From IMG/VR virus record IMGVR_UViG_3300005563_000033, positions 1 to 64,000 of that record: a stretch of DNA of 64,000 bases; one strand, given 5' to 3'. Origin of the DNA: a virus. A program made the position numbers and the translations under genes. Below the pieces are notes generated by a model. It was not told where the DNA came from and did no database searches. It saw nothing but the letters and a program-made list of their open reading frames with translations. Shown here one piece after another: positions 16,807 to 32,390 of this stretch. Numbering within the stretch: position 1 is the stretch's first letter; each line of letters begins with the position of its first letter.

Positions 16807-17277
16807 GTGGACAGAGAGCGTTTCAAAGAGGTCTATGAAGAGCATTATATAAAGATGCTCAGATATGCCAGAACAATGGTGCATGATCTGGATACGGCCC
16901 ATGACTTAGTGCTTGACGTTTTTCTGTTGTATCATAAGAATGCAGACATTGTTAAGTACGACGAAGTTTGGTTAATACGGGCCACCAGAAATTTATGCAT
17001 AGACCATCTTAGAAGGGTAAAGTTGCATAGAATAATGGAGGATACAATAGAATTAGAAGAGTGGGAGCCTTTCAAATGTAAAATTATCGAAGCGGAAGTA
17101 GGATACAATCTATCAAAAGAAATAAGTAAATTTCCTCCCAGATGCAGCCGTATTGTAACTTTATTTTTGAAGGGGCTTAATAGCAAACAGATAGGGGAAA
17201 GGTTGGGGATATCTTCACAAACAGCTAACAATCAGTACTCAATAGCTGTTAAAAAACTAAGATCACAATTACATTAA
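16807..17277 (+). CDS. ECF-type RNA polymerase sigma factor
   Basis: A 156-aa protein with both ECF core domains. Sigma region 2 spans about residues 12-70, including the helix ARTMVHDLDTAHDLVLDVFL and the -10-recognition segment ending NLCIDHLRR. Region 4 covers about 105-153, with the HTH LNSKQIGERLGISSQTANNQ and AVKKLRSQL. The start is GTG at 16807, since no ATG fits. Being first in the long plus-strand block, it probably redirects host RNA polymerase to phage promoters. No anti-sigma gene is adjacent. Sigma-family membership is confident, the regulon is inferred. Confidence 0.85.
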   Translation: MDRERFKEVYEEHYIKMLRYARTMVHDLDTAHDLVLDVFLLYHKNADIVKYDEVWLIRATRNLCIDHLRRVKLHRIMEDTIELEEWEPFKCKIIEAEVGYNLSKEISKFPPRCSRIVTLFLKGLNSKQIGERLGISSQTANNQYSIAVKKLRSQLH

Positions 17278-17278
17278 T

Positions 17279-17668
17279 ATGGCCAAAAGAAAAGTAGCGG
17301 CCACATCCAGAGCCGCATACGACAGTCTTACAGCAGACAAGCTAAGAGAAGATTACAAAAAGATCATGTCTGCGCTTTCGGTGCTTGGTGAGGCAACTTC
17401 AGAACAGATAGCCGGTAAGCTGAAATGTAAGCCAGATAAGGTATGGAAGCGTTTATCTGAACTAAAAAAGGCAGATGTTTTATACAAACCTGGCAACCGC
17501 CGCCCTCTTAAATCCGGCTGCATGGGATTTACTTGGGCGCTAACTGAGAAGGGGAAGCAGATAGTAGAGTCTTCTCAAGAATTACTCCCTGGACAGACAG
17601 TTCAAGACTTTTCAAGAGCATTCAACCAGCCATCACAATCTAATAATACAATTAATAGGTTATTTTGA
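17279..17668 (+). CDS. winged-helix DNA-binding protein (129 aa)
   Basis: A basic N-terminus, then MSALSVLGEATSEQIAGKLK and KPDKVWKRLSELKKADVLYK (residues about 30-72), a classic winged helix with recognition helix at VWKRLSELKKA and a wing rich in Gly/Arg. It follows the sigma gene after 1 bp. It may regulate the sigma or the following module. Target unknown. Confidence 0.7.
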   Translation: MAKRKVAATSRAAYDSLTADKLREDYKKIMSALSVLGEATSEQIAGKLKCKPDKVWKRLSELKKADVLYKPGNRRPLKSGCMGFTWALTEKGKQIVESSQELLPGQTVQDFSRAFNQPSQSNNTINRLF

Positions 17669-18258
17669 AAAGAGTTTTTCACCCTTATGATCTGTGGGAG
17701 GATTTTAAGTTTGGGATGTGGCGCAAAGTATCATTTAAAGAGGAACGACATTTTTTAGAAGCCGCCATAGTATTTACAGGAGATGCTGAATTGTATGGTA
17801 GATATATGATTAGAGCGATAAACGAATGGCCCTACGGATGTGAACATAATCTTAGTTGTGTCGGAATGAATAGACAAGCATGGATAGGACACGCGGCCAC
17901 TTGTATAGCTATCCACTGCCCTGAATATATTACCCGTCTTGCATGGCATCAATTGACTCAAAAACAGCAAGACGACGCAAACGAAAAAGCTGACATAGCA
18001 ATAAAAACTTGGGAAGAAAATTATGCCAAAGACAAAGATTGGAATAGATGTATTGACAGCCGCCCGTCATCGGATTTCATGGACGTTCGACACCTTCGAG
18101 AAAGTTTACCTTTCTTTCAGTGCCGGGAAGGACAGTACGGTGATGTTGCACTTAGTAGCGGAGGAAGCAAGAAAAAGAAAAAGGACGTTTGGTCTGTTGT
18201 TGATAGACATGGAAAGTCAATACAAACTAACGATGGATCACGCGACCGCCTGTTTTAG
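17665..18258 (+). CDS. conserved phage protein, C-terminal third overlapping the PAPS-reductase gene (197 aa)
   Basis: TTG start overlapping the preceding TGA. The first ~120 residues look like a genuine conserved domain (PYDLWEDFKFGMWRKV, then CEHNLSCVGMNRQAWIGHAA, CPEYITRLAWHQL), a small helical fold I associate with phage genes sitting beside PAPS-reductase/ParB pairs. The last ~78 residues are encoded in another frame of the next gene's N-terminus, where Ser/Lys-rich low-complexity sequence suggests the frame is only incidentally open. A natural stop may have been lost. No enzymatic motif. Confidence 0.6.
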   Translation: MKRVFHPYDLWEDFKFGMWRKVSFKEERHFLEAAIVFTGDAELYGRYMIRAINEWPYGCEHNLSCVGMNRQAWIGHAATCIAIHCPEYITRLAWHQLTQKQQDDANEKADIAIKTWEENYAKDKDWNRCIDSRPSSDFMDVRHLRESLPFFQCREGQYGDVALSSGGSKKKKKDVWSVVDRHGKSIQTNDGSRDRLF

Positions 18259-19234
18259 CGAATACTCTGATTGTACAGAGCCTTTTTGGTGCTGCCTTGA
18301 AATACATCTACGCAATGCCGTAAGTGTTTACGAGCCTCATTGGATAGCGTGGGACGAAACTAAAAAAGCCAGTTGGGTAAGAGAAAAGCCAGCAATTGCA
18401 TATCCTACTAATTTCTTTCCTTTTTATCACCGGGGGATGGAATTTGAAGAGTTTGTACCCGAATTTGGCTCATGGTATGCTGAAGGGAAACCATGCGCCT
18501 GTTTTGTTGGTATAAGATCGGACGAAAGCCTTAACCGTTATAGAACAATTGCCAGTGATAAAAAAATGATGTACGAAGGTCGTAAATGGACATCCTTAGT
18601 TCAGGATCAAGTATACAATATCTATCCCATTTACGATTGGAAGACAGAGGATATTTGGACATACCACGGCAAGAGACCAGACAAGCAATATAACAAGCTG
18701 TACGACTTAATGTACAAAGCAGGACTAACTATTAGCCAGATGCGTATATGTCAACCATATGGAGATGATCAAAGACGTGGCTTGTGGTTATTTCACCTTA
18801 TAGAGCCAGAAACATGGGCACGTGTAGTAGCCAGGGTGAACGGCGCAAACGGTGGCGCATTGTATATAAACGAATCTGGGAATGTAACAGGGTATAGGCG
18901 AATAAGCAAGCCGGAAGGCCATACGTGGCAATCGTTCGCTAAGATGCTTCTATCCTCAATGCCAGCTAAATCTCAAATACACTACGACGCTAAGATCAGC
19001 GTCTTTATAAAGTGGTGGATGGATAGAGGATACCCAGATGGTATACCAGACGAAGCACCCTACGAGATGGAAGCGAATAAACTAGCCCCCTCATGGCGTA
19101 GAATATGTAAGTCGTTGTTACGCAATGACTATTGGGGTAAGAGTATGGGCTTCAGCCAGACAAAATCGGAAGCGTACGAAAAATATTTAGCTCTTATAAA
19201 AAGAAAAAAAGAAAAATGGAAATTATCAATTTAA
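18023..19234 (+). CDS. PAPS-reductase-family protein, IbrA-like (DUF3440 type)
   Basis: A 403-aa member of the adenosine nucleotide alpha-hydrolase (PP-loop) group. The pyrophosphate-binding motif SFSAGKDSTVMLH occupies residues 31-43, and further conserved pieces are CFVGIRSDESLNRYR (about 160-174) and the C-terminal DUF3440-like region with WWMDRGYPDGIPDEA (about 332-346). IbrA proteins pair with ParB-like IbrB, as here (the next gene overlaps by 19 bp). PAPS reductases move sulfur or activate substrates with ATP. The real substrate of IbrA proteins is not established; nucleic-acid thiolation is one possibility by analogy with DndC. Confidence 0.85.
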   Translation: MPKTKIGIDVLTAARHRISWTFDTFEKVYLSFSAGKDSTVMLHLVAEEARKRKRTFGLLLIDMESQYKLTMDHATACFSEYSDCTEPFWCCLEIHLRNAVSVYEPHWIAWDETKKASWVREKPAIAYPTNFFPFYHRGMEFEEFVPEFGSWYAEGKPCACFVGIRSDESLNRYRTIASDKKMMYEGRKWTSLVQDQVYNIYPIYDWKTEDIWTYHGKRPDKQYNKLYDLMYKAGLTISQMRICQPYGDDQRRGLWLFHLIEPETWARVVARVNGANGGALYINESGNVTGYRRISKPEGHTWQSFAKMLLSSMPAKSQIHYDAKISVFIKWWMDRGYPDGIPDEAPYEMEANKLAPSWRRICKSLLRNDYWGKSMGFSQTKSEAYEKYLALIKRKKEKWKLSI

Positions 19235-19872
19235 TGGAAATAGAAGCGTTGCCGCTTCATGAAAAAATTGAAGCAATTAATCAGGCAAAACTAGCCTTAC
19301 ACGCTATTTCGCCTTTTAATAAAGAGCCGGTGGACTGTGTGTTGTGGGTAAGATCAGATACGGTTACAGCTAATGACTATAACCCTAATGCCGTAGCACC
19401 CCCAGAAATGAAATTACTGGCTATTTCTATAGGTGAAGATGGATATACACAACCTATCGTAACTTGGGTAGAAGAAGATAGGCGAGAAGTAATTGACGGC
19501 TACCATAGGCACCGTGTAGGTAAAGAGGACAAGGAAATAAATGTACGCATATTCAACTATCTCCCAGTGGTTACAGCCAACGAAAACAGAACAGACAAAG
19601 GAGATCGTATTGCCGCCACTATAAGACACAACCGAGCTAGGGGTAAGCACAAGATAGACGCAATGAGCGAAATTGTGTTAGAGCTTAAACGTCGAAACTG
19701 GTCAGATAAAAAGATAGGTCAGCAATTGGGTATGGATCAGGATGAAGTTTTAAGATTAGCGCAAATAACAGGGTTGGCTGAAATGTTTGCCGATAGAGAA
19801 TTTTCAGAAGCCTGGGAAGTTGATAAAATAGACGAAAACGACACACTTAGCATTCAAGAAGAAAATCAATAG
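19216..19872 (+). CDS. ParB-N-domain protein, IbrB-like
   Basis: A 218-aa protein with a ParB/sulfiredoxin-like nuclease domain: NPNAVAPPEMKLLAISIGED (about 57-75), TQPIVTWV and the signature IDGYHRHRVG (93-102), followed by helices with a HTH (NWSDKKIGQQLGMDQDEVLR, about 156-175). It overlaps the IbrA-like gene by 19 bp; an ATG at 19234 (TAATG junction) is the alternative start. IbrA/IbrB pairs occur in bacteria and mobile elements; IbrB has been linked to regulation, but the biochemical function remains open. Confidence 0.82.
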   Translation: MEIINLMEIEALPLHEKIEAINQAKLALHAISPFNKEPVDCVLWVRSDTVTANDYNPNAVAPPEMKLLAISIGEDGYTQPIVTWVEEDRREVIDGYHRHRVGKEDKEINVRIFNYLPVVTANENRTDKGDRIAATIRHNRARGKHKIDAMSEIVLELKRRNWSDKKIGQQLGMDQDEVLRLAQITGLAEMFADREFSEAWEVDKIDENDTLSIQEENQ

Positions 19873-31697: not shown

Positions 31698-32390
31698 ATG
31701 AGTGAATTAAAAGCTGCTGCTGGCCGTGTAATAGTCAAAGTAAAAATGGATGAAAAGGATTCATACCAGTTTGAATCCGGGCTAAAAATAGCTATCCAAC
31801 GCAACACCGAAAACTTTGACCGCAAATACACCTCTATATCCCAAGGAGAGGTAATGGACTCTGAATACATACCCAAAGGAGCAACCGTTTATTTCCACCA
31901 TAACGGAACCCACGAAAACAACCACATTTATAATTATAAAGCTCTTAATACCGAAGACATAGCCAATGAAATAAGATACTTCTCTATTCCAGAACAAGAA
32001 TGTTTCTTATATCGCATTGGAGACGGTGAATTATTGCCATTAAAGGGATTTGCCACCGCGCTTAGGGTATTCAAGCCTTACAATGGAATACTACAAGGCA
32101 TAGAACCAACTCTATTAAAGAATGTCCTGTATCTTACTTCCGGTGAAATGAAAGGACAAGTTTGTCATACCCTTAAAGCCTGCGATTATCAGCTAACAGT
32201 ATTGGTAGACGGAAGAGATAGAAACATCATTCGCGTACGAGATGTAGGATTCCATGAAGAACATCGAGAGGAACTTGTGGCCATTAACCACGCTTACGCC
32301 AAGCAAGTAAAAGAAGGAAAGCTATACCTAGGACTTACTACAACCGACTGCAAACCTTTAAATGAGTTTCAAAATGCCGTTCACGGATAA
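31698..32390 (+). CDS. protein with GroES-like N-terminal segment (230 aa)
   Basis: The first ~75 residues (AAGRVIVKVKMDEKDSYQFE...QGEVMDSEYIPKGATVYFHH) follow the strand and loop pattern of co-chaperonin GroES (GRVIVK..., later GEV and GxxVxFxxxxG). The rest (80-230) is beta/helical and unassigned. The genome also carries a full-length GroES-like protein at 43415. It may help fold virion proteins with host GroEL. Confidence in the domain is modest. Confidence 0.5.
   Translation: MSELKAAAGRVIVKVKMDEKDSYQFESGLKIAIQRNTENFDRKYTSISQGEVMDSEYIPKGATVYFHHNGTHENNHIYNYKALNTEDIANEIRYFSIPEQECFLYRIGDGELLPLKGFATALRVFKPYNGILQGIEPTLLKNVLYLTSGEMKGQVCHTLKACDYQLTVLVDGRDRNIIRVRDVGFHEEHREELVAINHAYAKQVKEGKLYLGLTTTDCKPLNEFQNAVHG

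What the first reader, a model, noticed from the sequence alone, without database searches (positions are those of the whole stretch)
17665..19872. Phage-borne PAPS-reductase/ParB (IbrA/IbrB-like) module with a conserved third gene
The PP-loop enzyme (SFSAGKDSTVMLH) and ParB-N protein (IDGYHRHRVG) overlap by 19 bp, and a 197-aa partner precedes them. The family is known from E. coli regulators and mobile elements, but its substrate and mechanism are not established. By analogy to DndC/DndB, sulfur chemistry on nucleic acids or a defence/counter-defence role is possible. Being the first enzymatic set after a phage sigma factor suggests early importance.
Basis: partly seen in the sequence, partly recalled or inferred. 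Interest (0 to 1): 0.7.

Follow-up and report, generated by a model that had tools for sequence, protein, structure and literature searches.

The report
Viral partner of phage IbrA/IbrB genes
Many bacterial viruses carry a linked set of three genes (an ATP-using enzyme, a DNA-binding-type protein and a small, almost virus-only helper of unknown fold) that is usually labelled as sulfate metabolism but looks instead like a DNA-related machine of unknown chemistry.

Summary
Window 18023-19234 encodes a DUF3440/IbrA PP-loop enzyme and 19216-19872 a ParB-like IbrB; they overlap by 19 bp. The preceding ORF is real, but only its first ~122 aa are the conserved protein. The other ~74 aa are an out-of-frame read-through into ibrA and are not conserved. 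This third protein matches no Pfam family (38 members scanned) and no PHROG with confidence. It is found in at least 551 viral stretches but in only 3 loci of 84,980 prokaryote genomes. Every third-gene locus examined also has IbrA, and 79 of 80 viral ones have IbrB (the exception is cut by a contig end). In 17 loci it is fused to the IbrB C-terminus. Its predicted fold is confident (pLDDT 97) and without a clear PDB match. In other phages a SNF2 helicase takes its slot, never both. A sub-branch adds an ectoine-synthase-like cupin, usually fused to IbrB. IbrA has no invariant cysteine, and none of 50 viral records holds a cysteine desulfurase or sulfite reductase, so CysH or Dnd chemistry is unsupported. 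Neighbours are replication and recombination genes. Best reading: a DNA-directed adenylation/modification module with IbrB as hub; substrate unknown.

The parts
17665..18039 (+). Third gene, conserved part (about 122-125 aa; TTG start overlapping the upstream stop): virus-enriched all-helical protein, conserved residues W11, E12, W55, C59 (94%), N69, W73, G75, P86, A109
18040..18258 (+). Non-conserved out-of-frame tail of the third ORF, overlapping ibrA; stop codon present beside the ibrA start in relatives is absent here
18023..19234 (+). ibrA-like gene: PP-loop (PAPS reductase / FAD synthase / CysD fold) domain, residues ~5-261, plus C-terminal DUF3440 region
18113..18151 (+). PP-loop motif SFSAGKDSTVMLH of IbrA
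19216..19872 (+). ibrB-like gene: ParB/Srx-type N-terminal domain plus conserved C-terminal region; overlaps ibrA by 19 bp
19495..19512 (+). DGYHRH motif of IbrB, equivalent of the ParB GERR box; the residue at the sulfiredoxin cysteine position is Y/F
19621..19644 (+). IRHNRARG motif of IbrB, nearly invariant in the family
17279..17668 (+). Small winged-helix-like protein (PHROG 1123) directly upstream, overlapping the third gene's start by 4 bp; probably same transcript (inferred from spacing)
16807..17277 (+). ECF-type sigma factor gene heading the rightward gene set

Best explanation
This is a phage-carried, DNA-directed adenylation (probably nucleic-acid modification) module. IbrA is a PP-loop enzyme that uses ATP to adenylate an acceptor; with no conserved cysteine it should work by AMP transfer, like CysD or FAD synthase, rather than by sulfur transfer or thiol reduction. 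IbrB is the hub: a ParB/Srx-fold protein with a DNA-binding-type C-terminal region that probably brings IbrA to phage DNA and may gate it by nucleotide binding. The third protein is a small helical adaptor that docks on the IbrB C-terminus (fused to it in some phages). In other phages a SNF2-type translocase takes its slot, so the slot probably couples the complex to the DNA substrate. Shown: gene content, linkage, fusions, partner exchange, fold class of IbrA (predicted), absence of invariant cysteine, replication/recombination neighbourhood. Inferred: DNA as substrate, AMP transfer, the adaptor role and any nucleotide gating. The acceptor is unknown.
For: Linkage: all 80 viral third-gene loci have IbrA and 79 have IbrB; the exception is cut by the contig end. 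72 of 80 loci nearest to the window's IbrA have the third gene. Gene order varies (47 B-3-A, 31 3-A-B, 48 A-cupin=B-3-a), so linkage outlives rearrangement. IbrB=third single-ORF fusions in 17 loci; cupin=IbrB fusions in 49. Partner exchange: in loci found with a Streptococcus IbrA, 48 of 80 have the third gene, 24 a SNF2 helicase and none both; the SNF2 gene mostly ends -34 to +9 bp from ibrA. IbrA model (pLDDT 87.5) matches FAD synthase (8rom Z 15.8), APS reductase (4bwv Z 15.2) and CysD (1zun_A Z 14.9). SxSxGKDS conserved and no cysteine invariant in 166 IbrA. IbrB profile hits ParB 4umk at 1.8e-05. Neighbours are recombinases, exonucleases, primases, helicases and SSB in 111 of 170 loci.
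Against: No substrate or activity is shown by any tool. Neighbourhood in replication regions is weak evidence, since many early phage genes lie there. The SNF2 partner occurs only in other phages; the window record has no Helicase_C match at all. The third protein's distances correlate only modestly with IbrA's (Spearman 0.30, against 0.74 for IbrA-IbrB), so it is less tightly bound to the pair. E. coli-type IbrAB mostly lacks it (2 of 25 loci have it).
Confidence: 0.42

Rival explanations
1. Transcription co-activator: IbrA and IbrB switch on phage genes, as the E. coli IbrAB island activates prophage eib genes; the third protein or SNF2 helps at promoters or on DNA.
For: The only genetic data on the family, known here from its title in the reference list of PMC10434257; IbrB has a ParB-type DNA-binding architecture; the module follows a sigma gene and a winged-helix gene.
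Against: A pure regulator does not need a conserved PP-loop active site, and activation could be indirect, through DNA modification. The original paper is not in the library.
Confidence: 0.2
2. Host take-over or counter-defence: the module makes or destroys a nucleotide signal, or marks phage DNA or a host target so that host defences fail.
For: Almost virus-only third gene (at least 551 viral stretches against 3 prokaryote loci); DndB and DpdB, ParB-superfamily proteins, are components of DNA-modification systems (PMC12839542).
Against: No match to defence models beyond weak PP-loop hits; no defence or anti-defence genes among the recurrent neighbours, though this was not searched for specifically.
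Confidence: 0.17
3. Phosphorothioate-type sulfur modification of DNA (Dnd/Ssp-like), with sulfur drawn from a host desulfurase.
For: IbrA shares the PP-loop fold with DndC and hits its models weakly; third protein has a largely conserved cysteine, C59 (151 of 160).
Against: No invariant cysteine in IbrA; DndC equivalog cut-off missed widely (21.9 against 290.4 bits); no desulfurase in 50 viral records; C59 is S, A, M or T in 9 of 160.
Confidence: 0.08
4. Auxiliary metabolism: a phage CysH that boosts host sulfate assimilation.
For: Annotation as PAPS reductase in phage records and PHROGs; fold similarity to CysH.
Against: TIGR02057 scores 34 against a cut-off of 254; no invariant cysteine, whereas CysH needs one; no sulfite reductase in 50 records; constant linkage to ParB-like and DNA genes.
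Confidence: 0.04

Closest known systems
IbrA/IbrB of E. coli ECOR-9 and YbdN/YbdM of E. coli K-12 (DUF3440 + ParB-like pairs)
   Same: Same two protein families in tandem; phage PhiR5_2 'IbrA' is 47% identical to the window protein; ybdNM is an operon in K-12 (PMC9068703).
   Different: These usually lack the third gene: 2 of 25 loci nearest the E. coli type have it.
CysH (PAPS/APS reductase), CysD and FAD synthase PP-loop enzymes
   Same: Fold and ATP loop; Z 14-16 over 164-190 residues.
   Different: No CysH equivalog score and no invariant cysteine; additional DUF3440 C-terminal region, partners with a ParB-like protein.
Dnd/Ssp phosphorothioation (DndC, DndB) and Dpd (DpdB)
   Same: PP-loop enzyme or base-modifying enzyme working with a ParB-superfamily protein (PMC12839542).
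   Different: No DndC-level match, no desulfurase in 50 viral records; DndD and DndE were not searched.
Ectoine synthase (EctC) cupins
   Same: In the cupin sub-branch the extra domain is EctC-like (PF06339 1.3e-32, 5bxx 3.4e-20) and keeps the E, Y and H that bind metal in EctC (residue roles from own knowledge).
   Different: Usually fused to IbrB in phages; no such gene in the window's module.

Membership tests
IbrA (DUF3440) | DUF3440 domain above Pfam cut-off | tested here: met
   123.6 bits against 25
IbrA (DUF3440) | Intact PP-loop SxSxGKDS | tested here: met
   S31, S33, G35, K36, D37, S38 conserved in at least 97% of 166 sequences
IbrAB module | Adjacent ParB-like IbrB gene | tested here: met
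   19-bp overlap in the window; present in 80 of 80 nearest loci
IbrAB module | Activation of prophage genes | not testable with these tools
   needs genetics
CysH (PAPS reductase) | Equivalog-level match | tested here: not met
   TIGR02057 34.2 bits against 254.2
CysH (PAPS reductase) | Catalytic cysteine (ECG-L/I-H motif, own knowledge) | tested here: not met
   no ECGLH motif in the window protein; no cysteine column invariant in 166 IbrA
DndC / phosphorothioation | Equivalog-level match to DndC | tested here: not met
   TIGR03183 21.9 bits against 290.4
DndC / phosphorothioation | Cysteine desulfurase partner | tested here: inconclusive
   absent from 50 viral records, but a host enzyme could serve
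ParB | ParB_N domain above Pfam cut-off | tested here: not met
   17.9 against 26.3 bits; the family profile does hit ParB 4umk at 1.8e-05, so distant kinship stands
ParB | Partition role with ParA and parS | not tested
   no search made
Sulfiredoxin | Active-site cysteine in GCHR (own knowledge) | tested here: not met
   position is Y or F in IbrB
Third-gene family (defined here) | Match to any described sequence family | tested here: not met
   38 members against Pfam none; PHROG best 0.019; PDB sequence search E 0.46 or worse
Third-gene family (defined here) | Known fold | tested here: inconclusive
   Foldseek E 4 or worse, best VIA Z 3.4

The most novel reading that the evidence does not exclude
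A previously undescribed class of phage DNA modification in which a cysteine-free PP-loop adenylyltransferase, steered by a ParB-like hub and either a small viral adaptor or a SNF2 translocase, attaches or installs a new group on phage DNA, in some phages finished by an ectoine-synthase-like cupin that closes a ring.
Probability: 0.25. Interest if true: 0.88.

Novelty: new variant of a known kind. Interest (0 to 1): 0.6.

Why it matters
Phage genes of this type are routinely labelled as PAPS reductase, and viral cysH is counted as a sulfate-assimilation auxiliary gene; a 2025 review lists it as not validated (PMC12713726). The evidence here says the DUF3440 type is something else: a multi-gene, DNA-neighbourhood module with a virus-enriched partner that apparently has no family name. 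The fusions and the exchange of the third protein for a SNF2 helicase give concrete, testable statements about which proteins touch and what the slot does. They also turn a puzzle left by the E. coli IbrAB work (how do these proteins activate prophage genes?) into direct experiments.

Tried and rejected
Third protein against Pfam, PHROGs, NCBIfam, PADLOC and PDB sequences: nothing usable. Its fold against PDB: no match; the small-Z hits to 14-3-3 and gyrase look like helical noise; in BFVD only its own homologue. The third gene in plasmids: none. The 74-aa tail as a conserved domain: rejected, tails differ between relatives. C59 as a strictly required catalytic cysteine: weakened, 9 of 160 lack it. 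A hidden third gene in Streptococcus, Lactobacillus, Fusobacterium and Flavobacterium IbrAB loci: not found even with filters off; a SNF2 helicase is adjacent or nearby instead. Literature: no paper found that joins IbrA/IbrB, ParB and a third phage gene; the original IbrAB paper is not held. Two family scans and one genome search failed for wrong coordinates or too many handles and were repeated.

Full report
What is in the window. The window is part of a 77,352-base virus record. Its terminase (PHROG 6681, 1.5e-72) is distantly related to those of Flavobacterium, Cellulophaga and Maribacter phages, so a Bacteroidota host is likely; the sigma gene also fits a Bacteroidetes ECF model best. Rightward genes begin with this ECF-type sigma factor (16807-17277) and a small winged-helix-like protein (17279-17668), then the three genes of the finding, then replication genes including a primase-helicase.

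Checking the observation. IbrA (18023-19234) and IbrB (19216-19872) are real and overlap by 19 bp. The first ORF (17665-18258) is real, but its relatives are 122-130 aa long. In the relative L002 the stop lies right at the ibrA start; in the window the reading frame passes on through the first 236 bp of ibrA. Across 103 loci this is the longest overlap; most loci lie between a 28-bp gap and a 29-bp overlap. The extra residues are not shared with the nearest relatives, so the tail is probably harmless read-through, although it may well be translated.

The third gene is a family of its own. Six diverse members align with invariant H, E, W, N and G positions; 38 members give 49% mean column identity. 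None of the 38 matches Pfam, and none of those tested matches a PHROG better than 0.019. It is absent from plasmids at that sensitivity. AlphaFold2 gives a compact all-helical fold at pLDDT 97 without a clear counterpart in the PDB; this does not prove a new fold.

It belongs with IbrA and IbrB. All 80 viral loci fetched by the third gene carry IbrA and 79 carry IbrB, the exception being cut by its contig end. Loci were fetched by similarity and some are near-duplicates, so these are not independent counts, but the tree below uses rows under 85% identity. In the reverse direction, 72 of 80 loci nearest to the window's IbrA have the third gene, all within the same short gene set. Gene orders are B-3-A (47), 3-A-B (31, as in the window), A-cupin=B-3-a (48) and others. 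In 17 loci IbrB and the third protein are one open reading frame joined by an 18-32-residue linker. This is the strongest evidence for a physical or functional pair.

It can be replaced. In Streptococcus, Lactobacillus, Flavobacterium and Fusobacterium phages the pair has a SNF2-type helicase next to it or one gene away and no third gene. In 80 loci fetched with a Streptococcus IbrA, 48 have the third gene, 24 have the SNF2 gene and none has both; the SNF2 gene mostly ends within -34 to +9 bp of the ibrA start, the same slot. On an IbrA tree of 101 rows the third gene occurs in both deep halves, with SNF2 rows interleaved (quick search, so details are unsure). E. coli-type pairs mostly have neither (2 of 25 with the third gene). 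IbrA and IbrB distances correlate at 0.74, third with IbrA only at 0.30 (permuted maximum 0.15), as expected for an exchangeable partner, though a short fast-evolving protein would also lower the value.

A fuller version. A well-supported sub-branch adds an ectoine-synthase-like cupin, fused to the IbrB N-terminus in 49 loci, and a free-standing copy of the IbrA C-terminal region (75-100 aa) just after the third gene. The cupin keeps the E, Y and H positions that bind metal in EctC (for the alignment; roles from own knowledge). An M. abscessus prophage paper noted a cysteine-dioxygenase-like gene and a PAPS-reductase-like gene in the same prophage (PMC8092301), possibly the same set.

What IbrA does. 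Its N-terminal domain has the fold shared by PAPS/APS reductases, CysD and FAD synthase, tied within about one Z unit. The ATP loop is conserved, but no cysteine is invariant in 166 sequences. CysH needs a C-terminal cysteine (own knowledge) and DndC has a specific cysteine dyad (PMC12839542); neither model is met at equivalog level. None of 50 viral records, the window's included, has a cysteine desulfurase or sulfite reductase, with positive controls ringing. So AMP transfer to some acceptor is the simplest reading and sulfur chemistry is not favoured; this is inference, as PP-loop enzymes can take sulfur from a partner.

What IbrB does. The family profile reaches ParB of the entry 4umk (1.8e-05) over the first two ParB boxes; GERR is replaced by GF/YHR and a nearly invariant IRHNRARG follows. 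The sulfiredoxin cysteine is missing. With the cupin fused at one end and the third protein at the other, IbrB is the hub of the module.

Neighbourhood. Recurrent neighbours are SF2 helicases, YqaJ and PD-(D/E)XK exonucleases, ERF and RecT recombinases, primases, SSB and a sliding clamp; 111 of 170 loci have at least one nearby (some cluster labels were read by eye). Together with SNF2 and ParB partners this points to DNA, not to sulfate metabolism. It remains circumstantial.

Conclusion. The pair is a known family; the third gene, its fusions, its exchange with SNF2 and the cupin version appear not to be described in the papers searched, but subscription journals and preprints were not searchable, so novelty is limited to that library. 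Best reading: a DNA-directed adenylation or modification module, about 0.42. The main weakness is that no substrate is known.

Noticed in passing
window 16807-17277: Phage-encoded ECF-type sigma factor, best NCBIfam match to a Bacteroidetes sigma family (5.5e-26, below its cut-off); only three weak relatives in the phage collection.
   Followed up: partly
L030 6347-6583, L050 5298-5528 and most other cupin-type loci: Free-standing 75-100-aa copy of the IbrA C-terminal (DUF3440) region encoded just after the third gene in cupin-type and some other loci, beside a full-length IbrA.
   Followed up: partly
L005 4742-5641, L029 2042-2962 and others: Ectoine-synthase-like cupin fused to the ParB-like IbrB in 49 loci; an unexpected enzyme for phages.
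   Followed up: partly
L077 6619-7692 and 34 other loci: ResIII-type SF2 helicase directly downstream of the module (median gap 54 bp) in 35 loci, distinct from the SNF2 type.
   Followed up: partly
window 31698-32390: Protein with a weak match to a phage co-chaperonin GroES family (5.6e-05).
   Followed up: no
L021 and L136: L021 ends inside ibrA; L136 shows two IbrB hits before the third gene, a possible duplication or frameshift.
   Followed up: no
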